Of a stretch of 40,465 nucleotides of DNA, positions 311 to 40,465 are shown piece after piece (position 1 is the stretch's first letter; every line of letters begins with the position of its first letter). The notes beneath the pieces were generated by a model, which was not told where the DNA came from, did not search any database, and saw nothing but the letters and a program-made list of their open reading frames with translations. The position numbers and the translations under genes are program-made. This DNA comes from Candidatus Avelusimicrobium pullicaecorum (GTDB taxonomy: Bacteria; Elusimicrobiota; Elusimicrobia; Elusimicrobiales; Elusimicrobiaceae), in contig CALUQD010000009.1 in NCBI GenBank assembly GCA_944322825.1, positions 1 through 40,465 of the forward strand. The letters run 5' to 3'.

Positions 311-361
311 GCCCCGGCTCGGGGCCCTTGATTTGTTTTTTTTTTTTGATAAATTTTGCGT
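311..361 (+). promoter_or_regulatory. Promoter of pilin P1 with 12-T spacer tract
   Basis: A GC hairpin GCCCCG-GCT-CGGGGC (311-325) is followed by a -35-like TTGATT (328-333), a 16-base spacer holding 12 consecutive T (336-347), and an extended -10 TGA-TAAATT (347-355). The ATG begins 6 bases after the -10, so transcription would start at or next to the start codon. The hairpin plus T-run also resembles an intrinsic terminator for upstream transcripts. The layout is seen directly; promoter activity is inferred. Confidence 0.65.
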
Positions 362-382
362 ATGAGCAAAATTTATCAAAAA
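343..382. repeat. 15-bp palindrome around the P1 start codon
   Basis: TTTTTGATAAATTTT (343-357) is the exact reverse complement of AAAATTTATCAAAAA (368-382). The 10-base loop contains the ATG (362-364). P6 has the same perfect palindrome (40286-40325) and P5 a copy with two mismatches. Its left arm contains the -10 hexamer. Confidence 0.8.
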
Positions 383-889
383 CCCTACCCGGCGGGGAAA
401 AACGCCGGATTCACGCTAATAGAGCTATTAGTGGTCGTTTTAATCATCGGCATTTTAGCGGCGGTAGCGTTGCCGCAATACGAGCAAGCGGTTGCCAAAT
501 CGCGTACGATGCGGGTGCTCCCTTTGCTTCGGTCTATATCAGACGCGGAAAATGTCTATTATATGGCCAACGGGACCTATTCGCTGGATTTCAGCGAGTT
601 GGACATCAGTATGCCGCCCGGGGCAAAAACAGTATCCGCGAGCCGAGTGGAATACGAAGATTTTTATTGTATTTTAAGAAAAGGAACGACCGGTGACAAT
701 GAAGCATCCACCCAGTGCATTAGCACCAAAAATCAATTTCCCAACTTAGAAAAGTATTTTGTGCGTTCGTATTTTATTTGTTGGCCGAGAACAAGCCGGG
801 ATACAAAAATTTGCCAGAATCTTTCTGGTCGTAAGACTGGGAATATGGTAAGTGGCGTTGGTGCAAGTCCTGGATATAGTTTCCAATAA
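362..889 (+). CDS. Type IV prepilin (P1)
   Basis: A 175-residue prepilin-type protein, the structural subunit of a type IV pilus or a pseudopilin, processed at the inner membrane by a PilD-like peptidase. The leader MSKIYQKPYPAGKNAG ends in Gly before the cleavage site and the mature N-terminus [10 protein letters not shown] carries the conserved Glu at position 5; the first 25 or so mature residues form the hydrophobic helix. A YYMANG motif follows, shared with P2, P3 and P5, while the C-terminal half is unlike theirs. ATG at 362 is preferred over the in-frame TTG at 356 because P5 and P6 start at the same place. There is no Shine-Dalgarno sequence; the promoter suggests a leaderless message. 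A second hairpin (CCGGCG/CGCCGG, about 389-408) lies in the leader codons. Whether it is a major pilin or a minor one cannot be told. Confidence 0.9.
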   Translation: MSKIYQKPYPAGKNAGFTLIELLVVVLIIGILAAVALPQYEQAVAKSRTMRVLPLLRSISDAENVYYMANGTYSLDFSELDISMPPGAKTVSASRVEYEDFYCILRKGTTGDNEASTQCISTKNQFPNLEKYFVRSYFICWPRTSRDTKICQNLSGRKTGNMVSGVGASPGYSFQ

Positions 890-4984: not shown

Positions 4985-5064
4985 CTATTTTTGCGCGGTG
5001 TAGGCGGCGGATTTTATGTTATGCGTTTGTGTTAGAAAACGGACTGGAGCGCAAGCAAAAAGTT

Positions 5065-5079
5065 TGATATTATGTATGT
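5065..5079 (+). promoter_or_regulatory. Leaderless-type promoter of the sigma factor gene
   Basis: TGA-TATTAT (5065-5073) is followed by 6 bases and then the ATG at 5080. There is no Shine-Dalgarno sequence. The same extended -10, six bases, ATG pattern occurs before tgt, ruvA, the cation transporter and pilins P1, P5 and P6. Confidence 0.6.
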
Positions 5080-6279
5080 ATGGAAAACGATTCCTTAGAC
5101 AGTGTAAACGAGTATTTTAAGCACTTAGGCAAAATCACGCAAGAAATTGACCGTGAGGAAATGTCCCGCTTGTGGAAGCTGGTAAAAAAAGGGGATAAGG
5201 ACGCCAAAAATAAAATTATGGAGATGAATTTGCGGTTGGTTATTCCGACGGCAAAACGTTTCCAGCGCCCCGGTATGGAATTAATGGACTTGATTGAAGA
5301 AGGCAATCTGGGCCTGCTGCAAGCCATTGATAAATTCGAGCCCGAAAAAGGATACCGCTTTTCTACATACGCCGTCTATTGGATTGAACAATACATCCGC
5401 AAATATATCGAAGAACAATCTGGCTCCATTAAAATTCCGTCGCACGCGTGGGGTAATTTGAAAAGATGGTTCCGCGCGTGGAACGAGCTCAAAGAAGCCA
5501 ACGGGCGCGACCCGTCCTTAAACGAAATGGCCGCCGAACTGAATTTAACTGCGCGGCAGGTAAAGTCGATTATGGACACCCTCAGCGCCGCCAAAGGCGT
5601 CGATTCGCTGACCACCCTCGTGCACGAAGAAGACGAAACCACCTTGGAAGATTTAATCAGCGATGACGGAAAAGGCAACCCGCACGATGTGTTTTTGAAA
5701 AACGAAAACCAGAACACCATCAAAAAAAGTATGGAAGATTTAAACGACCGCGACCGCCAGGTGGTCATTATGCGCTATGGGTTGGATGATAATGAACCCA
5801 AAACGTTGGGGGAAGTGGCCGAAATTTTGGGCCTCTCGCGCGAGCGGGTGCGCCAGATAGAAGAACGCGCGGTCAATACGCTTCGCAAAGAAGCGCAGAA
5901 AGCGGGTATTTTGGAAATCGCCGAAATGAATTTGCGTACGCGCAAACTGCACAGCGCTATGCGCCCCCGCTTAAAAACCAACATTTTGGGGCAGACGGTG
6001 GATAACAGCCCGTTGGCCCGCCTGCTGAAAAAACGGATGGCGTTGGCTGAACAGCAGGAAAAAGCAACCTCCCGCCGCAGCCCAAAAAAGGCTAAACCGG
6101 CCCCGAAAGCCGTCGCCCGCCGGAAGCCGGCTTCCAAAGCGGTTTCCAACAAGGTTAAACCCGCGGTGAAAAAAACGAAGCCTACTCATCAAGCCGTTTC
6201 CAAAAAAGCGAAAGCGGTTGCAAAAAAATCGAACACCGCCCGCCAAGCGGCTTCTAAAAAAACACGTTCCCGCAAGTAA
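5080..6279 (+). CDS. Sigma-70 family RNA polymerase sigma factor with basic tail
   Basis: A promoter-recognition subunit of RNA polymerase, 399 residues. Regions 1.2-2 (NEYFKHLGKITQ to FSTYAVYWIEQYIRKYI), region 3 and region 4 (LGLSRERVRQIEERA, the helix-turn-helix that reads -35) are complete by about residue 285. Region 1.1 is absent. In region 2.4 the usual W-W-I-R-Q-A-I-T pattern is Y-W-I-E-Q-Y-I-R, so this may be a RpoS-like or alternative factor rather than the primary RpoD. After residue 320 or so comes a histone H1-like tail of K, A, P and S (repeats of KKAK, KKTKP, SKKA) with no homologous part in standard sigma factors; it may bind nucleic acid. tRNA-Arg follows 8 bases after the stop and may be co-transcribed. 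Confidence 0.9.
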   Translation: MENDSLDSVNEYFKHLGKITQEIDREEMSRLWKLVKKGDKDAKNKIMEMNLRLVIPTAKRFQRPGMELMDLIEEGNLGLLQAIDKFEPEKGYRFSTYAVYWIEQYIRKYIEEQSGSIKIPSHAWGNLKRWFRAWNELKEANGRDPSLNEMAAELNLTARQVKSIMDTLSAAKGVDSLTTLVHEEDETTLEDLISDDGKGNPHDVFLKNENQNTIKKSMEDLNDRDRQVVIMRYGLDDNEPKTLGEVAEILGLSRERVRQIEERAVNTLRKEAQKAGILEIAEMNLRTRKLHSAMRPRLKTNILGQTVDNSPLARLLKKRMALAEQQEKATSRRSPKKAKPAPKAVARRKPASKAVSNKVKPAVKKTKPTHQAVSKKAKAVAKKSNTARQAASKKTRSRK

Positions 6280-10248: not shown

Positions 10249-10276
10249 TTGATTTGTTTTTTTTTTTTGATACACT
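10229..10276 (+). promoter_or_regulatory. Promoter of pilin P2 with 12-T spacer tract
   Basis: The layout is as in P1: hairpin GCCCAG-GCT-CTGGGC (10233-10247), TTGATT (10249-10254), a 16-base spacer with 12 T (10257-10268), and extended -10 TGA-TACACT (10268-10276). Here the -10 lies about 80 bases before the ATG, so a leader of about 70 bases is expected. Confidence 0.6.
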
Positions 10277-10285
10277 GGGCCTAGC

Positions 10286-10337
10286 GTTGATTTTTGGGCT
10301 GTTAATTATTAGACTGTAATTAAGCACTAAAATCAAC
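10286..10337 (+). promoter_or_regulatory. Nested 5'-leader hairpin of pilin P2
   Basis: GTTGATTTT (10286-10294) pairs with AAAATCAAC (10329-10337) and, inside, TTAATTA (10302-10308) pairs with TAATTAA (10317-10323). It begins within a few bases of the predicted transcript start and ends 5 bases before the AAGGAG site. It may stabilise the message or affect translation. P3 has the same structure. Confidence 0.65.
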
Positions 10338-10354
10338 TTGCTAAGGAGTATTTG

Positions 10355-10849
10355 ATGAAAAAGGGTTTTACTTTAATCGAACTGCTCGTTGTCGTCCTAA
10401 TTATTGGTATCCTGGCGGCGGTAGCCTTGCCGCAATACGAAATGGCGGTGCTCAAATCCCGTTTTGCGGCTATTCGTACGGTGGGGGAGAATCTAAAAAG
10501 AGCTGAAGAAGTATATTATATGGCCAATGGCCATTACACATCCACCACGGAGGACCTAGATATTGATTTTAAAGGCGCTTGTAAAGGAACGGGCGTTCTA
10601 CAATGCGAAAATTTCTTTCGGGTGGATATCATCAACGGAGCCGGAATTGTGACGGATCCCGGCAAATTGTATATTAGTATCATCTATTATCCGCAAGGAT
10701 ATGACCTGAGCGCGGATTCTGAGAGAGGGACGGGGGCCTTTTTCTATACCATTTGGCTTGATAACTCCTCTTACCCTGGAGAACGACGTTGTACCGGCTA
10801 TACAGACCTGGGAAAGAAATTTTGCAAAATGATGAATGCCGCACAGTAA
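10355..10849 (+). CDS. Type IV prepilin (P2)
   Basis: A 164-residue prepilin with a very short leader, MKKG, before [14 protein letters not shown] with Glu at mature position 5. The hydrophobic helix ends at PQYEMAVLKSR, then a YYMANG motif (about residue 52) and a variable C-terminal domain with four Cys (CKGTGVLQC and later RRC/FCK), likely paired as in other pilins. ATG at 10355, not TTG at 10352, is used because AAGGAG lies 6 bases before it. Unlike P1, P5 and P6 it has a Shine-Dalgarno site and a leader hairpin, so it belongs to a second pilin class together with P3. Its role as major or minor pilin is open. Confidence 0.9.
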   Translation: MKKGFTLIELLVVVLIIGILAAVALPQYEMAVLKSRFAAIRTVGENLKRAEEVYYMANGHYTSTTEDLDIDFKGACKGTGVLQCENFFRVDIINGAGIVTDPGKLYISIIYYPQGYDLSADSERGTGAFFYTIWLDNSSYPGERRCTGYTDLGKKFCKMMNAAQ

Positions 10850-11310: not shown

Positions 11311-11411
11311 TTGATTTGTTTTTTTTTTTTGATACACTGGGCCTAGCGTTGATTTTTGGCTGTTAATTATTAGACTGTAATTAAGCCTTAAAATCAACTT
11401 GCTAAGGAGTT
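11050..11411 (+). repeat. Long direct repeat, copy 2 (pilin P3 leader)
   Basis: This is the second copy of the repeat at 9988-10350, offset by 1062 bases. The copies flank gene P2, so homologous recombination between them could delete or amplify P2. Confidence 0.9.
11291..11338 (+). promoter_or_regulatory. Promoter of pilin P3 with 12-T spacer tract
   Basis: Hairpin GCCCAG-GCT-CTGGGC (11295-11309), TTGATT (11311-11316), 12 T (11319-11330) in a 16-base spacer, and TGA-TACACT (11330-11338). It is identical to the P2 promoter. A nested leader hairpin follows (GTTGATTTT/AAAATCAAC). Confidence 0.6.
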
Positions 11412-11415
11412 TTTA

Positions 11416-11883
11416 ATGGAAAAAGGTTTTACTTTAATCGAACTGCTGGTTGTCGTCCTAATTATTGGCATATTGGCGGCGGTGGCGTTGCCGCAATACC
11501 AAAAAGCGGTGGCAAAAAGCCGCTTGACGCAAGCGGTGACCAGTCTAAAGTCCATTACCGATGCCCAGGAAGTATATTATATGGCGAACGGCCAATATAC
11601 CAACGATTTGGAAGATTTGGACATTGCTGTTGAAAATACGGATACTTGGTCATTTGATTGTTTTGATTCCCGGACATGCCAAGCGAGGCCCAGCGCCTAC
11701 AATTTACCTAGTTTGGAATTTCATTTAATTAACTTGCCTGCGGATAGTACCGCTCCCGCTTCTTACAGCGGAAAAAGATGGTGCCGGGCTAATCCGTCGG
11801 ATTCTTTTCAAAATAATTTATGCAAAAGTTTTGGGCCTTTGGCAATGACATCGAACAGTAGGAATTATTATTCAATGAATTAA
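11416..11883 (+). CDS. Type IV prepilin (P3)
   Basis: A 155-residue prepilin with short leader MEKG and mature [14 protein letters not shown]. The helix ends at [17 protein letters not shown] is at about 53 and then NDLEDLDIA, the same arrangement as in P2. The C-terminal domain differs from P2 in sequence but keeps four Cys ([19 protein letters not shown]). The start has AAGGAG 6 bases upstream. With P2 it looks like a tandem duplication in which the leader DNA stayed nearly identical (recent copy or gene conversion) while the variable domain differs. Confidence 0.9.
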
Positions 11884-12868: not shown

Positions 12869-15448
12869 ATGACCAAACCAGTACCCCAATTCTTTCTAAT
12901 TGACGCGCATAATTTTCTGCACCGCAACTACCACGCGTTGCCGAAGCTGTCCACCTCGTCCGGGCAGGAAGTGGGGGCGCTGTTTGGCTTTGCCCGGTGG
13001 CTGATTAAAATGCTGCGCGAGCATAATCCGGCCTATGTGGCGGTTTGTTTTGATTCGCCCGGCGGCTGTGCGCGGCGCAAAGCGCTGTACCCGGCCTATA
13101 AAGGTACGCGCAAAAAGCCGGATGATGCCCTTATCAGCCAACTTGATTTGGCGCGGGAATTGGTGGATACGCTGGGGCTTCGCGTTGTGGCTCAGCCGGG
13201 CATCGAAGCGGACGATTTAATGGCTTTTTTGGCCAAAAGCGCGGCAAAGGAACACGTCCCCAGTGTGCTGGTGACGACGGACAAAGACGTCTATCAATTT
13301 TTAAACGATTACATTTCCATCTGGCCGGCCGGCGGGAAGGACGGTTTTAAAGGGCCGGAAGCCGCCAAGGAAAAATTTGGCGTGGACGTACCGTTTTTGC
13401 CGGATTATTTTTCCATCGTGGGCGATGCGGCCGACAATGTGCCCGGCGTGATGGGCGTAGGCCCCAAAAGCGCGGTGGATTTAATTAACAAATTCGGCCA
13501 TTTGGAAGATATCATCCGCGCGGCCCAAAACGACAGCCCGGATATGAAACCGGCCGTGGCTAAAAAAATTCTTACCCACGAAGGGGAGGCGCTCCTCTCC
13601 AAGCAGTTGGTGGTGCTGGACCCCAATTTGCAAATGCCTTTTTCGCTGGCGGATTACCGCGTACGCACGCCGGAAAAATCCAAGCTGACGGAATTGTTTG
13701 AACGGTACGAATTTAAAAATTTATTGGATTTTTACCAAGCGCCGCGTCCGGCGGCTTCTTCGTCTGCCGCGCAAACGGTTCAGCCCAAGCTGACCGTACA
13801 GCAAGTGCTGGAACGGGCTGTAGAGAATGGAAAAATCTTCTTGCACGCGCAGGAAGAACTCCTTACGCTGGGGCTCAACGAAACGGAATTTGCCATCGCG
13901 CCGCTGGCCGAGGTGCAGCCGTGGGAACTGGATACGCTTAAGAAACTGGTGGAAAACGACGCGGTGGAAAAAATCGGCTACGACTTAAAACTTACCTTGC
14001 GCGAATTGGACATCAATGTACACGGGCAGTTTATTACGTGTTTTGACGGCCGTTTGGCCCGCTATTTGTTGGACCCGTCGGGGGATTTAAGTTTTGCGGG
14101 CGCGTGTTTGGATTATTTTTCGGCCACCGTCAGCGAGGAAGACCCCCGCGCCTTAATGGCCGAATACAACCGCTTTATCTGGCCGATGAAGGATATTTTA
14201 ATCCAAAAGTTGCGAGAAAGCGGTCAGTACGATTTGTTCCTCCACTTGGAATTGCCGTTGATGATGATATTGTCGGATATGGAATTTGCGGGCTTTCGGG
14301 TGGACCCGGGCTGGCTGGAAAGTTTCAAGGCGCTTTTGGAGCAGGAAATCGCCCGCCTGCAAAAAGATATCGACGCCCGCGCCGGTTACCCCGTCAACAT
14401 TAATTCCACCAAACAGCTGGGAACGCTGTTGTTTGAGGAAATGAAAATTCCGCCCGTCAAAAAAACCAAAACCGGTTATTCTACGGACGAAGAAGTACTG
14501 GAGCAAATCGCTCAAACGCACCCCATTGCGCGTGCCATTTTGGAATACCGCGCCAGCAATAAATTAAAGACCACGTATGTGGATAACTTGCTGCTGATGG
14601 CCGACGAAAACGACAAAGTTCATTCTTACTTGGACCAGACGGGAACCGTTACGGGGCGTCTGTCCAGCTCCACGCCGAACTTGCAAAACATTCCCGTCCG
14701 TACGGAAAAAGGACGCCTCTTGCGCAAGGCTTTTTGCGCGGCGCCGGGCAATGTGCTGCTGAGCGTGGATTACTCTCAGATTGACTTGCGCGTCTTGGCC
14801 CACGAAAGCCAGGACCCGGTGCTCGTGCAGGCATTTTTGGACGGGGGGGACATCCATACCCAAACCGCTGCGCAGATTTTTGGCGTAATGCCTTTGATGG
14901 TGAGCGAACAAATGCGCTCTAGTGCAAAGGCAATTAATTTTGGTATCATTTATGGACAGGGCCCTATGGGCCTTTCCCAATCGCTCGGCATTTCTCTGCG
15001 CGAGGCAAAAGAATACATAGACAATTATTTTAAGAATTTCCGCGTCGTGCGCGAATGGATTGATAAAAACATTGCGCTGGCCCGCCAAAATGGATACGTC
15101 AAAACAATGTTGGGCCATGTGCGCTACCTGCCCGAGTTTAATATGGGCGTGGGTTCTATGGCTTCTTTTGCGCAGCGGGCCGCCATTAATACGATTGTGC
15201 AGGGCGGCTCGGCCGATATTATTAAAAAAGCGATGATAGACGTGTTCCGCGTTTACCGCGGCACGCCCGTGCAGATGACGATGCAAGTGCACGACGAATT
15301 GATTTTTGAATTGCCGCAGGACCGCCTGGGCGAAACGGCCGCCCGCATCAAGGAATTAATGCAAAACGCCGTGCGCCTGCGGGTGCCGCTTTTGGCCAGT
15401 GCAAAAGCCGGCAAAAACTGGTACGAACTGGAAAAACTGCCTTTATGA
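12869..15448 (+). CDS. polA: DNA polymerase I
   Basis: An 859-residue repair and Okazaki-fragment polymerase. The N-terminal 5'-3' exonuclease (residues 1-290; IEADDLMAFLA, TTDKDVYQFL, GDAADNVPGVMGVGPKSA) is complete. The polymerase domain has motif A LLSVDYSQIDLRVLAH (Asp634), motif B RSSAKAINFGIIYG and motif C QVHDELIFEL (Asp809). The middle 3'-5' exonuclease region is present in size but lacks the catalytic D-x-E (here IFLHAQEE) and the later Asp (YDLKLTL instead of NLKYD), so proofreading is probably lost, as in Bacillus and Thermus enzymes. There is no clear Shine-Dalgarno sequence; a TATAAC lies just before the start. coaE overlaps the stop by 4 bases (ATGA). Confidence 0.97.
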   Translation: MTKPVPQFFLIDAHNFLHRNYHALPKLSTSSGQEVGALFGFARWLIKMLREHNPAYVAVCFDSPGGCARRKALYPAYKGTRKKPDDALISQLDLARELVDTLGLRVVAQPGIEADDLMAFLAKSAAKEHVPSVLVTTDKDVYQFLNDYISIWPAGGKDGFKGPEAAKEKFGVDVPFLPDYFSIVGDAADNVPGVMGVGPKSAVDLINKFGHLEDIIRAAQNDSPDMKPAVAKKILTHEGEALLSKQLVVLDPNLQMPFSLADYRVRTPEKSKLTELFERYEFKNLLDFYQAPRPAASSSAAQTVQPKLTVQQVLERAVENGKIFLHAQEELLTLGLNETEFAIAPLAEVQPWELDTLKKLVENDAVEKIGYDLKLTLRELDINVHGQFITCFDGRLARYLLDPSGDLSFAGACLDYFSATVSEEDPRALMAEYNRFIWPMKDILIQKLRESGQYDLFLHLELPLMMILSDMEFAGFRVDPGWLESFKALLEQEIARLQKDIDARAGYPVNINSTKQLGTLLFEEMKIPPVKKTKTGYSTDEEVLEQIAQTHPIARAILEYRASNKLKTTYVDNLLLMADENDKVHSYLDQTGTVTGRLSSSTPNLQNIPVRTEKGRLLRKAFCAAPGNVLLSVDYSQIDLRVLAHESQDPVLVQAFLDGGDIHTQTAAQIFGVMPLMVSEQMRSSAKAINFGIIYGQGPMGLSQSLGISLREAKEYIDNYFKNFRVVREWIDKNIALARQNGYVKTMLGHVRYLPEFNMGVGSMASFAQRAAINTIVQGGSADIIKKAMIDVFRVYRGTPVQMTMQVHDELIFELPQDRLGETAARIKELMQNAVRLRVPLLASAKAGKNWYELEKLPL

Positions 15449-27468: not shown

Positions 27469-28653
<1,185 letters not shown>

Positions 28654-32370: not shown

Positions 32371-33393
32371 TTAGAAAAGTAAATCGGTATGTTGTTTGCG
32401 GCCCATATGTTCGTAGGCTTTGCGGGTGGCTACGCGTCCGCGCGGGGTGCGCGCAATAAAACCGGCTTTGATGAGGAACGGTTCTATGACGTCGGTCAGC
32501 GTGTCTACCGCTTCGGACACGGCAATCGCCAGATTGTCCACACCCACCGGTCCGCCGGAAAAGCGGTCGATGAGGGCTTCCAAAATCCGTTTGTCCACAC
32601 TGTCCAGGCCTTCGCCGTCGATATCCAGCGAGTCCATCGCCGTGTTGGCGATATCGTGCGTGATGACGCCGTTTCCCTTTACTTGGGCAAAATCCCGTGC
32701 GCGGCGCAGCAAGCGGTTGGCGATGCGCGGCGTGCCGCGGGAACGTTTGGCCAGCTCCGTAAGGCCCGCGCGGTCCGCCTGAATATTCAGCAGGCGGGCG
32801 GAGCGTTCCAAAATATCGGTAATTTCGGGGATTTCGTAAAACCCGAGGTTAAATACAATGCCAAAGCGGTCGCGCAGGGGGCCGGTCAGCAGGCCGGAGC
32901 GGGTCGTCGCGCCGACGAGCGTAAAGCGCGGCACGGCCAGTTTTAAGGTGGTGGAGCCGGCGCCTTTGCCGGTGTTGATAAAAAAGGTGAAATCTTCCAT
33001 TGCCGGGTAGAGGGCTTCTTCCACGGCGGGGTTTAGGCGGTGGATTTCGTCAATAAACAAGATATCCCCGTCGGACAGTTCGGTGGTCAGCATAGCGGCC
33101 AAGTCGCCGGGGCGGGCCAGCACGGGGCCGGAAGTGACTTTGATGTTCACGCCCATTTCCCGCGCCAAGATGTTAGCCAGCGTGGTTTTGCCCAGGCCGG
33201 GCGGCGCGTAAAAAAGGCAGTGGTCCAACGCTTCTTTGCGGGATTTGGCGGCCGCAATAAAAATGCGTAAATTTTCTTTTAGTTTTTCCTGGCCGACAAA
33301 TTCGTCCAAGGTGGTGGGGCGCAAAGCGGCTTCCAGCCCGGCGTTTTCGTCGGGCAGTTGGGAAACGTTTAAAATTTCGTTTTGGTTGCTCAT
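32371..33393 (-). CDS. ruvB: Holliday junction branch-migration helicase RuvB
   Basis: A 340-residue AAA+ motor that with RuvA drives branch migration. Walker A is in [13 protein letters not shown]; Walker B is in [15 protein letters not shown]; the arginine finger region lies in [10 protein letters not shown], and the C-terminal winged helix has [12 protein letters not shown]. It overlaps ruvA by 4 bases. Its partner ruvC lies beyond pilin P5. Confidence 0.98.
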
Positions 33394-34001
33394 TTTTTCA
33401 GTACCCGCAGGGCCTCTTTGATGATGTTTTCAATTTTGTCGTTGGGGTTGATGCCTTCGGCATACAGTTTTTCCATTGCGCGGCGCGCTTCCGCCGCCGA
33501 ATACCCCAGCGCGGACAAGGCTTCCAGCACGCCGCTCATATACGGCGCTTCGTCCATCACTTTTATTTTGCTTTCGCCCTGGACGGTGACGGCGTCCATC
33601 TTGTCCTTTAAGGAGTTGATGAGTTTTTCCGCCGTTTTGGATGTAAAACCAAAAATGCCCGTCAAAATTTTCGGGTCGCGTTTTAAAATGGCGTTGTGGA
33701 AATCGGCCACTGAACGCAAGGCTTTGTTCAAAAATTCCATTGCTTTTTTGGGGCCGGTGTTGGGAATGGCGGTTTTAAACAGGAGCCAAAGGTCTTTGTC
33801 CTCTTTGTTTAAAAATCCGTACAGGACGGTTCCGTCGTAGGGGGAAATGGATTCGGCCACATACAGCGCGGCTTCGGTTCCCGCCGTCAGCTCCAAAGCG
33901 GAGCTGTGGGCCAGGTTCACTTCATACCCTACCCCGCCGCAGACGATAACGACGCCGTCCTCTTTCACTTCCAGCACTTCGCCTTTTAAATACGCTATCA
34001 T
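33390..34001 (-). CDS. ruvA: Holliday junction DNA-binding protein RuvA
   Basis: A 203-residue tetramer-forming protein that holds the junction. The OB-fold start [12 protein letters not shown], a helix-hairpin-helix region with [13 protein letters not shown] and [10 protein letters not shown], and the C-terminal three-helix domain that binds RuvB ([16 protein letters not shown]) are all present. No Shine-Dalgarno site; the ATG is 6 bases after an extended -10 (34008-34016), so the message may be leaderless. It is the first gene of ruvA-ruvB-spoIID-queA. Confidence 0.95.
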
Positions 34002-34007
34002 ACCTAC

Positions 34008-34016
34008 ATTTTAGCA
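34008..34016 (-). promoter_or_regulatory. Leaderless-type promoter of ruvA
   Basis: Minus strand TGC-TAAAAT lies 6 bases before the ruvA ATG. The promoter sits at the edge of the pilin P5 cassette, which separates ruvA from ruvC. Confidence 0.6.
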
Positions 34017-34309
34017 TATTATCCGGCCGGAGCCCGGCCGAGGCCAAGGGAGTACTTTTTGGGGCGGGAAAAAGTACCAAAAAACGCCCGGTGCCGTTGC
34101 GCAAGAGCGCGACATTGCAGGAACAGTGTGGCGTGCTAGCGGGTAAAGAGAGGGGGGCACCGGCTCTAGGCTGTTGCGTATGGTGCAACAGTGCGGAAAC
34201 AGTGTGGCGTAAACTAATCGCGCTAATGGGTATAGAGTTCCACCCCCTGGAAGGGGCCCTTTTTCTGACGCCAGAAAAAGGGCGAAAAAGAGCGCCGCCC
34301 CAGGGAGCC

Positions 34310-34406
34310 ACAAAAATCACTTTCAAACGGGAAATTTTATAACTTGCGCGGGCTTTGCCCGCGCTCAAACAATAAAATTTTCTAATCCGTTTGAAAGGCT
34401 TTTTGT
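34310..34406 (+). repeat. Nested hairpin element, copy E2
   Basis: ACAAAAA (34310-34316) pairs with TTTTTGT (34400-34406). CTTTCAAACGG (34320-34330) pairs with CCGTTTGAAAG (34387-34397). GAAATTTTAT (34331-34340) pairs with ATAAAATTTTC (34372-34382, one extra T). GCGCGGGC (34346-34353) pairs with GCCCGCGC (34357-34364). Compared with E1, the changed bases in the stems are matched by changed partners. Confidence 0.85.
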
Positions 34407-34510
34407 AGACGGCTCTAAAGGGGGCGGATAAACGACACCAGCAACGATAATGACAGAAGCGGAAACAACGACCACAGTAACGACAGAAGAGAAAAGGGCC
34501 CGCATTTTGG

Positions 34511-34649: not shown

Positions 34650-34699
34650 CCCCGGCGCGGGGGCCTTGACTCGTTTTTTTTTTTTGATAAATTTTGTCT
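34650..34699 (+). promoter_or_regulatory. Promoter of pilin P5 with 12-T spacer tract
   Basis: A GC hairpin (GCCCC...GGGGC, 34649-34664), a -35 of TTGACT (34666-34671, the best match to TTGACA among the pilins), 12 T (34674-34685) in a 16-base spacer, extended -10 TGA-TAAATT (34685-34693) and the ATG 6 bases later at 34700. Confidence 0.7.
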
Positions 34700-35266
34700 A
34701 TGAGCACAACTTATCAAAAAACCTTCCCGGCGGGGAAAAACGCCGGATTTACGCTTATAGAGCTTCTTGTGGTGGTTTTAATTATCGGTATTCTGTCGGC
34801 GATTGCGCTGCCGCAGTATACCAAAGCGGTGGAAAAATCCCGCGCGGCGCAGGCATTGGCGGTTTTGAAATCCTTTGGGCAAGCGTATCAAGCCTATTAT
34901 ATGGCCAATGGGGAATATCCGACTTCGTTTGACCAGCTGGATTTGGATATGAAAGGTTGGACGGGAAAGGAAAAGTGGTACACTTATAATAATACGGACA
35001 CGCGTTCTAATGGAGATTGGTCTTTGCAGCTTTTAAATAAAACAGATACCGCTGGAATATACATTGGTCGACTTACCGGGGAATATAAAGGCGTTGGCTT
35101 TGGCTTTTTTGGAAAGGCACTGTATGATACGGATACGATTTTGTGCTTGGAGCGGACAAGCGGTGGAGTTGTTTTTGAAAAAAATGCCGGGGATTACTGT
35201 ACCAAACTTTTTCATGCACCGTTTCTTAACGCTGTAGGCGGAACGCGGGCCTATCGTATGCCGTAA
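34700..35266 (+). CDS. Type IV prepilin (P5)
   Basis: A 188-residue prepilin with leader MSTTYQKTFPAGKNAG, mature [23 protein letters not shown] and Glu5. YYMANGEYPTSFDQLDLDM follows, then a variable region that differs from the others. ATG at 34700 is taken over the in-frame TTG at 34694 by analogy with P1 and P6. Its stop codon touches the ruvC stop on the other strand (35266/35267), with no room for a terminator. It lies within the yebC-ruvC-ruvA-ruvB order on the opposite strand, a sign of insertion. Confidence 0.9.
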   Translation: MSTTYQKTFPAGKNAGFTLIELLVVVLIIGILSAIALPQYTKAVEKSRAAQALAVLKSFGQAYQAYYMANGEYPTSFDQLDLDMKGWTGKEKWYTYNNTDTRSNGDWSLQLLNKTDTAGIYIGRLTGEYKGVGFGFFGKALYDTDTILCLERTSGGVVFEKNAGDYCTKLFHAPFLNAVGGTRAYRMP

Positions 35267-36837: not shown

Positions 36838-37758
36838 TTATTTGGCCGGCGCGTGGGCGTGGTCCAGCGAGGACGGCTCCGGATGGATGGTGACCAGCGT
36901 CTGCGGGCCGAAGGCCTGCTGCAGGGCTTGCTCCATTTTGTCCGTGGCGTTGTGCACGCGTTTTAAGTTCCACTCGTCCGGCAAATAAACGTGAAATTCC
37001 AAGCAGGCATATCCGCCGATTTTGCGCGTTTTGATGTTGTGTGCGCACGCGGCCGGTTCGGCCTGGCGGCAGATTTTTACGATGTTCTTTTCCGCCTGGG
37101 CGCCCAGCGATTTATCCAGTAGTTCCTGCGTGGCGGATTTTAAAATGTTCCAGGCGACTTCAAAAATAAAGAAGCTGACGATGACCGCGGCCAGCGGGTC
37201 CAGCACCGTCCATTTGTTGCCCAAAAAATACGCCCCGCCGATACCCAGCAGGGTGCCGATGGAGCTCATCGCGTCCGAGCGGTGGTGCCAGGCGTTGGCT
37301 TCCAGTGCGGAACTGCCGATTTGCTTGGCAGCTTTGAGGGTGTAGCGGTACAGCCATTCCTTTACAATAATGGACAGCACGGCCGTCCACAGCGCTACGG
37401 CGTGCGGGCGGGCGATGGTGCCGCCTTCGGCCAGGCGGACGATGTCCGTCACGCCGTTGTACAAAATTTTGGCTCCCACCGCCAGCAACGCTACGGCAAT
37501 CACCAGCGCGGCCATGGTTTCAAAACGGCCGTGGCCGTAGGCGTGGTCCTGGTCGGCCGGGCGGGCCGAAAATTTTAAACTCACCAGCACCACAATGTCC
37601 GTCAGCGAGTCGGACAGCGAATGCACCGCGTCCGCCACCATGGCGGAGCTGCGCCCCCAGATACCGGCCGCAAACTTGGCCGCGCAGAGGAGCGTGTTGA
37701 TAATCATACCCTTGACGGTAATGTCCCGGGCAAAAGCAGAACGCGTTTGTAAATCCAT
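36838..37758 (-). CDS. Cation diffusion facilitator transporter
   Basis: An inner-membrane exporter of 306 residues that moves divalent metals (Zn, Fe, Mn or Co) out in exchange for protons. Six hydrophobic segments are seen in residues 15-215. Metal ligands are the H-x3-D pairs His46/Asp50 (DAVHSLSD) and His158/Asp162 (HHRSDAMSS). The C-terminal cytoplasmic domain (about 215-306) has His and Asp. Specificity is not predictable from this alone. A leaderless-type promoter precedes it. It runs opposite to the CpXC gene. Confidence 0.92.
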   Translation of the reverse strand: MDLQTRSAFARDITVKGMIINTLLCAAKFAAGIWGRSSAMVADAVHSLSDSLTDIVVLVSLKFSARPADQDHAYGHGRFETMAALVIAVALLAVGAKILYNGVTDIVRLAEGGTIARPHAVALWTAVLSIIVKEWLYRYTLKAAKQIGSSALEANAWHHRSDAMSSIGTLLGIGGAYFLGNKWTVLDPLAAVIVSFFIFEVAWNILKSATQELLDKSLGAQAEKNIVKICRQAEPAACAHNIKTRKIGGYACLEFHVYLPDEWNLKRVHNATDKMEQALQQAFGPQTLVTIHPEPSSLDHAHAPAK

Positions 37759-37764
37759 ATCTAT

Positions 37765-37773
37765 ATTTTATCA
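37765..37773 (-). promoter_or_regulatory. Leaderless-type promoter of the cation transporter
   Basis: Minus strand TGA-TAAAAT lies 6 bases before the ATG, with no Shine-Dalgarno site. Confidence 0.6.
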
Positions 37774-37819: not shown

Positions 37820-37828
37820 TGCTATAAC
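37820..37828 (+). promoter_or_regulatory. Promoter of the CpXC gene
   Basis: TGC-TATAAC is an extended -10; the ATG at 37837 is 8 bases downstream and no ribosome site is seen, so the message is near-leaderless. TAGTCA at 37800-37805 is a weak -35. Confidence 0.5.
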
Positions 37829-37836
37829 TAATACAT

Positions 37837-38478
37837 ATGAAATCCATTAAAAACGAAGCAGCCGCACGCTGCCCCAACCATTGTGAACCTTTTGATGTGG
37901 AGTATTGGTCGTTCATCAGTGCCGAACAAGACCCCGATTTGAAAACCGCCATTTTGGGCGGCGAACTCAATTTAGTACAGTGCCCCGAGTGCAAGACGTT
38001 TTTTCACCACGACGGGGATTTGATTTATTTTGACGCGCCTTCAGAGCTGCTTGTCTTTGTGTTCTCGGAGAAAGACCGTCAGCGCGAGCCGGAGCTGGTG
38101 GCTCGTATGCACAAGGATTATAACCTAATCAAAAACACTTTGCTAAAGCAGTTAAATATGGACTACCCGCCCATATGCGTATTTGGGCTGGAAGCCCTAA
38201 AGGGGGTTTTGCAGGGGGAAGAGGAAGCGTCTTATGAATCGGAAGCGGTGGCTGCTTCGGCAGCGGCCGCCGGCCTGCGCGTGGTGCGGTTGAAACCGTC
38301 TTATGCGCGGGAGCACCATTTCCCGTTCTATGTGCCCGCACCGGAAAAGGACCAAACGCCCAACGGTTATGCCGTGGCGGCAAGCAAAGTCCTTAAAACC
38401 GGCTTGCAGAGCAAAATGCTGCGCAACTTTTTGGACCAAATGAGCCAAGACAAAGCCTTGCCCCCGCAAGTGCTATGA
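37837..38478 (+). CDS. CpXC domain protein
   Basis: A 213-residue protein. The N-terminal 100 residues fit the CpXC domain: Cys at RCPNHC and at QCPECKTFF form a likely zinc site, with LIYFDAPSELLVFVFSE between strands. The function of this family is unknown. The rest has no recognised motif, apart from an Ala-rich stretch near 140. It overlaps the nucleotidyltransferase gene by 4 bases (ATGA), so they are translated together; a link to tRNA maturation is only a guess from this. Confidence 0.8.
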   Translation: MKSIKNEAAARCPNHCEPFDVEYWSFISAEQDPDLKTAILGGELNLVQCPECKTFFHHDGDLIYFDAPSELLVFVFSEKDRQREPELVARMHKDYNLIKNTLLKQLNMDYPPICVFGLEALKGVLQGEEEASYESEAVAASAAAAGLRVVRLKPSYAREHHFPFYVPAPEKDQTPNGYAVAASKVLKTGLQSKMLRNFLDQMSQDKALPPQVL

Positions 38479-39731: not shown

Positions 39732-39753
39732 CTTTTTCTGGTGCCAGAAAAAG
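39732..39753. repeat. Poly-T/poly-A hairpin
   Basis: CTTTTTCTGG (39732-39741) pairs with CCAGAAAAAG (39744-39753), a perfect 10-bp stem with a 2-base loop. Confidence 0.7.
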
Positions 39754-39871
39754 TACCAAAAAGCGCCCGGTGCCGTTGCGCAAGAGCGCGACATTGCAGG
39801 AACAGTGTGGCCCAACCAGTCGTGTTAACGGGTGAAGGAAAGGGGGCACCGGCTCGGTGCCCCAGGGCCCC

Positions 39872-39968
39872 ATAAAAATCACTTCCAAGCGGGAAATTTT
39901 ATAACTCGCGCGGGCTTTGCCCCGCGCTCAAAAAATAAAATTTCTAATCCGCTTGGAAGGCTTTTTAT
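39872..39968 (+). repeat. Nested hairpin element, copy E3
   Basis: ATAAAAA/TTTTTAT (39872-39878 and 39962-39968), CTTCCAAGCGG/CCGCTTGGAAG (39882-39892 and 39949-39959), GAAATTTTAT/ATAAAATTTC (39893-39902 and 39935-39944) and GCGCGGG/CCCGCGC (39908-39914 and 39921-39927). The outer stems match E1; the top hairpin matches E2 more closely. Confidence 0.85.
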
Positions 39969-40072
39969 AGACGGGGCGAAAGGGCCGGATAAACGGCAAC
40001 AAGCACGGCCACGGCAAAAGCGGAAACGGCTTTCCTTTTTGCCGTTGTTTTTGGGGCCCTTTAGAGCCGCTT

Positions 40073-40167
40073 ATAAAATACGCTTTCGGGCGAAAAAGGC
40101 GTTTTATCTGTCTGAGCGCGGGGGACCCGCGCGAGTTATAAACGCCCGCCCGAAAGGTGTATTTTAT
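40073..40167 (-). repeat. Nested hairpin element, inverted diverged copy E4
   Basis: ATAAAATA (40073-40080) pairs with TATTTTAT (40160-40167). CTTTCGGGCG (40083-40092) pairs with CGCCCGAAAG (40147-40156). GGCGTTTTAT (40098-40107) pairs with ATAAACGCC (40138-40146, one base short). GCGCGGG (40116-40122) pairs with CCCGCGC (40126-40132). Read on the minus strand it has the same parts as E1 in the same order, including the unpaired AACTC before the top hairpin and the bulge on the 3' side. Its stems share few bases with E1. Confidence 0.75.
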
Positions 40168-40192
40168 GGCTCCCCGGGCCCCGCATTTTTTG

Positions 40193-40218
40193 GTACTTTT
40201 TTGTGCCCAAAAAAGTAC
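40193..40218. repeat. Poly-T/poly-A hairpin
   Basis: GTACTTTTTT (40193-40202) pairs with AAAAAAGTAC (40209-40218). It follows E4 as the one at 34511 follows E2. Confidence 0.65.
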
Positions 40219-40256
40219 AGAGGCAATTCATCGTGTTAACGGGTATAGAGAGGGGA

Positions 40257-40304
40257 GCCCAGGCTCTGGGCCTTGATTTGTTTTTTTTTTGATAAATTTT
40301 GGCT
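40257..40304 (+). promoter_or_regulatory. Promoter of pilin P6 with 10-T spacer tract
   Basis: Hairpin GCCCAG-GCT-CTGGGC (40257-40271), TTGATT (40273-40278), 10 T (40281-40290), extended -10 TGA-TAAATT (40290-40298) and ATG at 40305 after 6 bases. The spacer is 14 bases instead of the 16 in the other pilins because the T-run is two shorter. Confidence 0.65.
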
Positions 40305-40465
40305 ATGAACAAAATTTATCAAAAACCCTTCTCGGCGGGGAAAAACGCCGGATTTACGCTAATAGAGCTATTAGTAGTGGTTTTAATCATTGGTATCCTG
40401 GCGGCGGTGGCGTTGCCGCAATATACCAAAGCGGTGGAAAAATCCCGTTTAATGAAATGGGCTCC
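40305..40465 (+). CDS. Type IV prepilin (P6), 5' part
   Basis: The first 53 codons of a prepilin, cut by the window end. The leader [16 protein letters not shown] precedes [19 protein letters not shown], with Glu5 and the KAVEKSR end of the helix. The leader and start-codon palindrome match P1. The variable domain lies outside the window. The promoter has a shorter T-run than the other copies. Confidence 0.88.

What the first reader, a model, noticed from the sequence alone, without database searches (positions are those of the whole stretch)
5065..5082. Common extended -10 promoters that suggest leaderless mRNAs
An extended -10 lies exactly 6 bases before the ATG for the sigma factor (5065-5073), tgt (28645-28653), ruvA (34008-34016), the cation transporter (37765-37773) and pilins P1, P5 and P6; the CpXC gene is close to this (8 bases). 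None of these starts has a Shine-Dalgarno site, while genes with a longer leader (malQ operon, rpmE, yebC) have one. That regular spacing would put the transcript start at the A of ATG.
Basis: partly seen in the sequence, partly recalled or inferred. Interest (0 to 1): 0.65.

Follow-up and report, generated by a model that had tools for sequence, protein, structure and literature searches.

The report
Leaderless promoters and repeated pilin cassettes
In this gut bacterium some genes appear to be transcribed starting exactly at their start codon, a known but minority habit, and about forty near-copies of a pilus-protein gene do it with one shared, palindromic, slippage-prone switch-like promoter.

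Summary
The window is contig 9 of a 1.52-Mb Elusimicrobiaceae genome. Upstream of coding starts, an (extended) -10 peaks sharply 6 nt, and less at 7 nt, before ATG: TGNTANANT-N6-ATG has 86 matches against 3 for the reversed pattern. Short-ORF ATGs show no peak. These genes lack Shine-Dalgarno sites, start almost only with ATG, are almost never operon-internal, and have T at -1. In ruvA orthologues the 6-nt spacing is kept in 24 of 25. Leaderless mRNA is the best reading, not yet measured; it is a known mode in a phylum where I found no published report of it.

About half of the genome's matches are one thing: a pilin cassette. It has -35 TTGATT/TTGACT, a T-tract (usually T12) as spacer, TGATAAATT, six bases, ATG, and no SD, with the ATG in the centre of a palindrome whose arms covary between paralogues. 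Sixteen sister pilin genes carry the same T12 promoter, but with an SD and ATG 77-78 nt downstream of the -10. This natural control supports a transcription start at the ATG in the first class. All 63 T-tracts of 10 or more in the sequence examined lie in such cassettes. Tract length varies between copies and genomes, suggesting, but not proving, phase variation.

The parts
5065..5082 (+). extended -10 TGA-TATTAT (5065-5073), 6-nt spacer, ATG 5080 of sigma-70-family gene 5080-6279
   Evidence: motif at N6-N9 in 37 of 41 orthologues
28636..28653 (-). extended -10 TGG-TAAAAT (28653-28645), 6 nt, ATG of tgt (27469-28638)
33999..34016 (-). extended -10 TGC-TAAAAT (34016-34008), 6 nt, ATG of ruvA (33390-34001)
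   Evidence: exactly 6 nt in 24 of 25 readable orthologous starts
37756..37773 (-). extended -10 TGA-TAAAAT (37773-37765), 6 nt, ATG of cation-efflux gene (36838-37758)
37820..37839 (+). weaker case: TGC-TATAAC, 8 nt, ATG 37837 of CpXC gene; no SD found
328..364 (+). pilin P1 cassette promoter: -35 TTGATT 328-333, T12 336-347, -10 TAAATT 350-355, 6 nt, ATG 362
343..382 (.). palindrome (arms 343-359 and 366-382) with the P1 ATG in the 6-nt loop
   Evidence: covariation
362..889 (+). pilin P1 (N_methyl)
34666..34702 (+). pilin P5 cassette promoter: -35 TTGACT 34666-34671, T12 34674-34685, -10 TAAATT 34688-34693, ATG 34700; palindrome arms imperfect here
34700..35266 (+). pilin P5 (N_methyl)
40273..40307 (+). 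pilin P6 cassette promoter: -35 TTGATT 40273-40278, T10 40281-40290, -10 TAAATT 40293-40298, ATG 40305 (spacer 14)
10249..10357 (+). contrast: same poly-T promoter (TTGATT 10249-10254, T12 10257-10268, TACACT 10271-10276) before an SD-led pilin (AAGGAG 10343-10348, ATG 10355)
11311..11418 (+). second such SD-led pilin promoter (T12 11319-11330), ATG 11416

Best explanation
A sigma-70-type holoenzyme recognises a (usually TG-extended) -10 whose last T lies six, sometimes seven, bases before the ATG. Transcription starts at or within a base or two of the A of ATG, so the mRNA has no leader and no Shine-Dalgarno site and is translated as a leaderless message; most other genes use Shine-Dalgarno initiation. 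In the pilin class the same logic is packaged as a repeated cassette: -35 (TTGA[CT]), a poly-T spacer normally giving 16 bp, a TGATAAATT -10, ATG at +1, and a palindrome centred on +1. Shown by computation: the motif statistics, spacing, SD exclusion, orthologue conservation, and the shared promoter of leadered and leaderless pilins. Inferred: the transcript start, leaderless translation, and any regulatory role of palindrome and poly-T.
For: 86 vs 3 reversed-pattern matches. Peak at N6/N7 only, independent of start calls (25 of 2084 vs 1 of 10576). SD of 4 or more in 16 of 95 non-operon TA genes vs 408 of 617 others, p 6e-20; control spacing 18-19: 17 of 23. 97 of 98 TA starts are ATG; TA sites in 3 of 496 genes with under 25 nt to a same-strand upstream gene vs 59 of 333 divergent/first genes. 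T at -1 in 66 of 68 N6 genes vs 289 of 456 SD-led. ruvA 24 of 25 at exactly 6; sigma factor 37 of 41 at 6-9. Reversed-control excess in all 30 tallied other genomes of the genus, 1877 vs 212. Pilin classes A (ATG six bases after the -10, no SD) and B (same T12 promoter, SD, ATG 77-78 nt after the -10). 16S tail keeps the anti-SD CCTCC.
Against: No transcript data. 14 of 68 N6 genes have an SD-like match of 4 or more, close to what chance -10 matches (about 12 expected) would give. Four of 41 sigma-factor orthologues lack the motif and five have 8-9 nt spacing, which would leave 2-3 nt leaders. T at -1 is also common in SD-led genes (63%). My gene caller is home-made and starts are not curated.
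Confidence: 0.9

Rival explanations
1. Pilin transcripts start further upstream, and the palindrome acts as an RNA hairpin (AUG in the loop) that controls translation, for example as a thermosensor or attenuator; the N6 spacing there is incidental.
For: The longer RNA would fold very stably (-23.2 and -19.6 kcal/mol, z -5.2 and -4.3 for P1 and P6; -16.2, z -3.0 for P5). The arms covary. 27 of 43 cassettes have a same-strand upstream gene.
Against: A -35 and -10 with 16-bp spacing sit within and beside the 5' arm (31 of 42 copies). The same promoter is used by SD-led sister pilins without the palindrome. Some poly-T pilin cassettes in other genomes lack the palindrome (L319, L325, L327, L332). 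8 of 43 cassettes have a divergent upstream gene.
Confidence: 0.12
2. The palindrome covaries only because quasi-palindromes are corrected to perfect palindromes by template switching in replication, plus gene conversion among copies; it has no function.
For: Copies are near-identical, and palindrome arms can template each other (template switching is established knowledge, recalled). Only one position (-10/+11) shows extensive covariation.
Against: The varying position is the one base of TANANT that the promoter leaves free, so the other arm positions are expected to be fixed. Three alternative pair types occur (C-G 19, G-C 6, T-A 4 of 175), with amino-acid change I to M in the C-G type. SD-led pilins have the short leader [20 protein letters not shown] instead of KIYQK.
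Confidence: 0.3
3. The spacing peak reflects AT-rich composition or weak coding-start artefacts and not promoters.
For: Upstream regions are AT-rich; TANNNT alone is common.
Against: Reversed control 3 vs 86; peak absent at short-ORF ATGs; orthologue footprints.
Confidence: 0.02

Closest known systems
TA-led leaderless genes of bacteria (Zheng et al. 2011, PMC3160421; passages and section 7 read)
   Same: -10-like TANNNT about 10-12 bp before the start codon, replacing the SD; a TG peak before it is reported for some low-GC genomes
   Different: Elusimicrobia are not in that paper's list of groups with leaderless genes (207 of 953 genomes); here the -10 is often TG-extended in a 52% GC genome
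-10 region adjacent to ORFs in Deinococcus-Thermus (PMC12340547; abstract and outline seen only)
   Same: -10 directly before the ORF, expression by leaderless mRNA
   Different: reported there as a common mode, here a minority; no repeated pilin cassette was noted in what I saw
Homopolymer-spacer phase-variable promoters (Bordetella fim poly-C, Mycoplasma vlp poly-A; recalled, from no call)
   Same: homopolymer between -35 and -10 of surface-protein genes, present at many paralogous loci
   Different: poly-T, about 60 pilin loci per genome, ATG at the presumed +1 in most; switching not shown here
Multiple pilE-like genes of Elusimicrobium minutum (about 60, function unknown; recalled from the 2009 genome paper, not seen in a call)
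   Same: many dispersed type IV pilin-like genes in the same family
   Different: the exact cassette pattern occurs only in the window's genus, 22 of 340 phylum genomes

Membership tests
Bacterial leaderless (TA-led) genes | -10-like hexamer at fixed short distance (about 10-12 bp from its first T) from the start codon, above background | tested here: met
Bacterial leaderless (TA-led) genes | no Shine-Dalgarno site | tested here: met
   16 of 95 with SD of 4 or more vs 408 of 617
Bacterial leaderless (TA-led) genes | AUG start codon | tested here: met
   97 of 98
Bacterial leaderless (TA-led) genes | transcription start at the start codon | not testable with these tools
   needs 5'-end RNA sequencing
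Homopolymer-spacer phase-variable promoters | homopolymer lies between -35 and -10 | tested here: met
   spacer 14-17 with T10-T13 in 41 of 42 G000 copies; the 42nd has no T-tract and no -35
Homopolymer-spacer phase-variable promoters | tract length varies between copies or strains | tested here: met
   T6-T17, mode T12 (131 of 175); T12 vs T10 at a 98.6%-identical locus; assembly error not excluded
Homopolymer-spacer phase-variable promoters | length changes within one population and alters expression | not testable with these tools
   no reads or expression data
Type IV pilins | class III prepilin N-terminus (N_methyl, GFTLIELL) | tested here: met
   PF07963 above cut-off for P1, P5 and 10355-10849
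Type IV pilins | assembly into a pilus | not tested
   -

The most novel reading that the evidence does not exclude
Some 60 pilin genes per genome are driven by copies of one poly-T-spacer promoter, each an independent slippage switch set 'on' at T12. In most, the start codon is fixed at +1 in the middle of a covarying palindrome, so that only messages begun at that promoter (lacking the 5' arm) are translatable, while read-through messages fold the AUG into a hairpin. The sister class reads the same switch through an SD leader. The result would be a combinatorial, leak-proof pilin repertoire in gut Elusimicrobiaceae.
Probability: 0.22. Interest if true: 0.78.

Novelty: new variant of a known kind. 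Interest (0 to 1): 0.55.

Why it matters
It adds Elusimicrobiaceae to the groups with predicted leaderless expression. It also gives a natural experiment in which one promoter is joined to a leaderless start in about 43 pilins and to a Shine-Dalgarno leader in 16 sisters. And it turns the open question of why these bacteria carry dozens of pilE-like genes into a testable one: are they a slippage-switched repertoire?

Tried and rejected
A paper search containing '-35' was rejected as a bad term. Rfam on the window gave only three tRNAs, so no known riboregulator explains the pilin starts. I considered a GC-rich hairpin before TTGATTTG as an essential cassette part: it is usual in the window's genome but was not evident in most cassettes I looked at from other genomes, so I treat it as local, possibly a terminator. 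I considered the palindrome as part of the core promoter and rejected that: poly-T pilin promoters without it exist. Literature: 'leaderless' with 'Elusimicrobi' gave 2 papers. In one I saw passages, on anti-SD types; the other I saw only in the listing. Searches on Elusimicrobi + pilin, E. minutum or pilE-like, Avelusimicrobium and Elusimicrobi + type IV pili/pilE listed nothing on such promoters; I read listings, plus passages of PMC8035907. The library holds open-licence papers only. One search tallied 98 of the 149 genomes, typed from its table; 51 (G000 itself and 50 more distant ones) were left out.

Full report
What was checked. The window is contig 9 (all 40,465 bases) of a 1,516,778-base genome in 80 contigs. 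Orthologues of its sigma factor come from Elusimicrobiaceae, 'uncultured Elusimicrobium' and Candidatus Avelusimicrobium gut genomes, so the organism is a gut Elusimicrobiaceae member. I held 95.4% of the genome (1,446,615 bases, 52% GC) and called 1299 genes with a simple dicodon caller.

The sites.

Chance. TGNTANANT-N6-ATG: 86 matches, 3 for the pattern read backwards. Among 1234 called starts outside the pilin cassette, TGNTANANT counts are 25 at N6 and 16 at N7, with 0-8 at every other distance from 0 to 44. For TANANT: 68 and 30 against a mean of 12.4, of 1209 genes. A count that does not use my start calls gives 25 (N6) and 15 (N7) before 2084 first ATGs of long ORFs, against 1 and 6 before 10,576 ATGs of short ORFs.

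Are they leaderless? Genes with TANANT at N6-7 seldom have an SD (16 of 95 non-operon genes, against 408 of 617 without the motif; p 6e-20), while the same motif at N18-19 goes with SDs normally (17 of 23). They start with ATG (97 of 98) and are almost absent where a same-strand gene ends less than 25 nt upstream (3 of 496). The base before ATG is T in 66 of 68 N6 genes against 289 of 456 SD-led ones; a pyrimidine at -1 and purine at +1 is a usual start preference (recalled). The 16S tail carries CCTCC, so SD initiation coexists. The excess over background is about 73 of 1209 genes, plus 43 pilin cassettes.

Conservation. In 28 ruvA loci of the genus (own included) 25 starts could be read; 24 have TG[CG]TA[AC]AAT exactly 6 nt before ATG and one has 8, although flanks and most of the six spacer bases differ (two fragmentary matches were left out). 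In 41 sigma-factor loci, 37 have TGNTANNNT at N6 (22), N7 (10), N8 (1) or N9 (4); four do not (the 12 more distant loci were not examined). Phylum-wide, the pattern exceeds its reversed control in 30 of 30 tallied other genomes of the genus (1877 vs 212), 13 of 13 others of the family, 14 of 14 others of the order, and 13 of 13 others of the class; in 28 tallied genomes of the largest distant family it is only 677 vs 390.

The pilin cassette. In the 95% of the genome held, an exact pattern finds 43 copies of T10-13 followed by GATAAATTTTG-NNN-ATG. Those long enough to judge encode prepilin-type proteins, mostly starting MxKIYQK. The -35 is TTGATT, TTGACT or TTGACG in 41 of 42 copies, and the spacer is 16 in 31 of 42 (14 in 5, 15 in 4, 17 in 1; one copy lacks tract and -35). 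The ATG sits in the middle of a palindrome: 38 of 40 copies with a readable pilin have perfect 13-bp arms. In 175 distinct cassettes (40 from this genome, 135 from others of the genus) the pair at -10/+11 is A-T 129, C-G 19, G-C 6, T-A 4 and unpaired 17; 10,000 shuffles reached at most 123 pairs against 158 observed. Caveats: the copies are related; most were fetched with the upstream arm fixed elsewhere, and sought non-A variants on purpose, but the downstream arm was never part of a search. Position -10 is the one free base of the hexamer TANATT, so the data fit a double constraint, promoter and dyad. 52 of 175 do not have perfect 13-bp arms.

A natural control. Sixteen other pilin genes of this genome, two of them in the window (ATG 10355 and 11416), carry the same TTGATTTG or TTGACTCG, T12, TGATA[CAG]ACT, but with the ATG 77-78 nt downstream of the -10, an AAGGAG-type SD, the short leader [13 protein letters not shown], and no palindrome. 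Where the ATG is six bases from the -10 there is no SD; where it is 77-78 bases away there is one. Of 67 T-runs of 9 or more (both strands), all 63 of length 10 or more lie in pilin cassettes of these types (two of them degenerate forms); the four other runs, all T9, do not.

Distribution and variation. The exact cassette pattern is in 22 of 340 phylum genomes, all in the window's genus (22 of 66). T-tract length ranges from 6 to 17, mode 12 (131 of 175). At one locus 98.6% identical to G160, this genome has T10 and G160 T12. At other syntenic places lengths mostly agree but differ by one in several (L400, L402, L406, L409). Single-gene orthology was not proven there, and homopolymer errors in assemblies are possible. 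At four places a 0.66-1.0 kb gap around a cassette in another genome faces almost none here (L364, L377, L403, L410), so units are gained or lost.

Mechanism. Most likely: promoter with TSS at ATG, leaderless mRNA. For pilins, RNA begun upstream would hold the AUG in a hairpin loop (P1 -23.2 kcal/mol, z -5.2; P6 -19.6, z -4.3; P5 -16.2, z -3.0), while RNA begun at the AUG leaves the first 27 nt of P1 and 25 nt of P6 unpaired, and P5 only weakly paired. This suggests, but does not show, that only the cassette's own transcript is translatable. The dyad could equally be an operator for a common regulator, or an evolutionary by-product.

Literature. Leaderless genes signalled by TANNNT about 10-12 bp upstream are known in many bacteria (PMC3160421: passages, section 7); Elusimicrobia are not in its list. 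PMC12340547 (outline and abstract) reports the same for Deinococcus-Thermus. One search found no paper on leaderless genes in Elusimicrobiota in the held library. Hence 'new variant of a known kind': the leaderless part is a new member, and the poly-T, palindromic, two-format pilin promoter is the variant.

Noticed in passing
10249-10357 and 11311-11418 (+); 16 copies in the genome: SD-led pilins use the same T12 promoter as the leaderless ones; their leader holds a GTTGATTTT...AAAATCAAC inverted repeat just before the SD.
   Followed up: partly
44-196, 34056-34470, 39734-40250: The roughly 700-bp gaps upstream of pilins are mosaics of dispersed repeats with nested inverted repeats (e.g. GAAATTTTATAACTTGCGCGGGC...), shared among many contigs.
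   Followed up: no
L364:965-1621, L377:1148-1807, L403, L410: Pilin units present in relatives but absent at the matching place here, within otherwise syntenic DNA.
   Followed up: partly
5030-5062 upstream of the sigma factor: A CTGGAG-containing element upstream of the -10 is kept in the closer sigma-factor orthologues (e.g. L161-L172) and lost in distant ones; possibly a -35 or activator site.
   Followed up: no
5080-6279: The sigma factor scores best to RpoS/RpoD models but below every curated NCBIfam cut-off shown, and its last ~120 residues match nothing in those tables.
   Followed up: no
388-408 and the same place in P5 and P6: A GC hairpin CCGGCG-GGGAAAAA-CGCCGG (TCGGCG in P6) lies in the coding sequence before GFTLIELL in this genome's pilins.
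   Followed up: no
genome-wide: 209 of 712 non-operon, non-cassette genes have neither an SD of 4 or more nor a TANANT at N6-7, for example polA at 12869.
   Followed up: no
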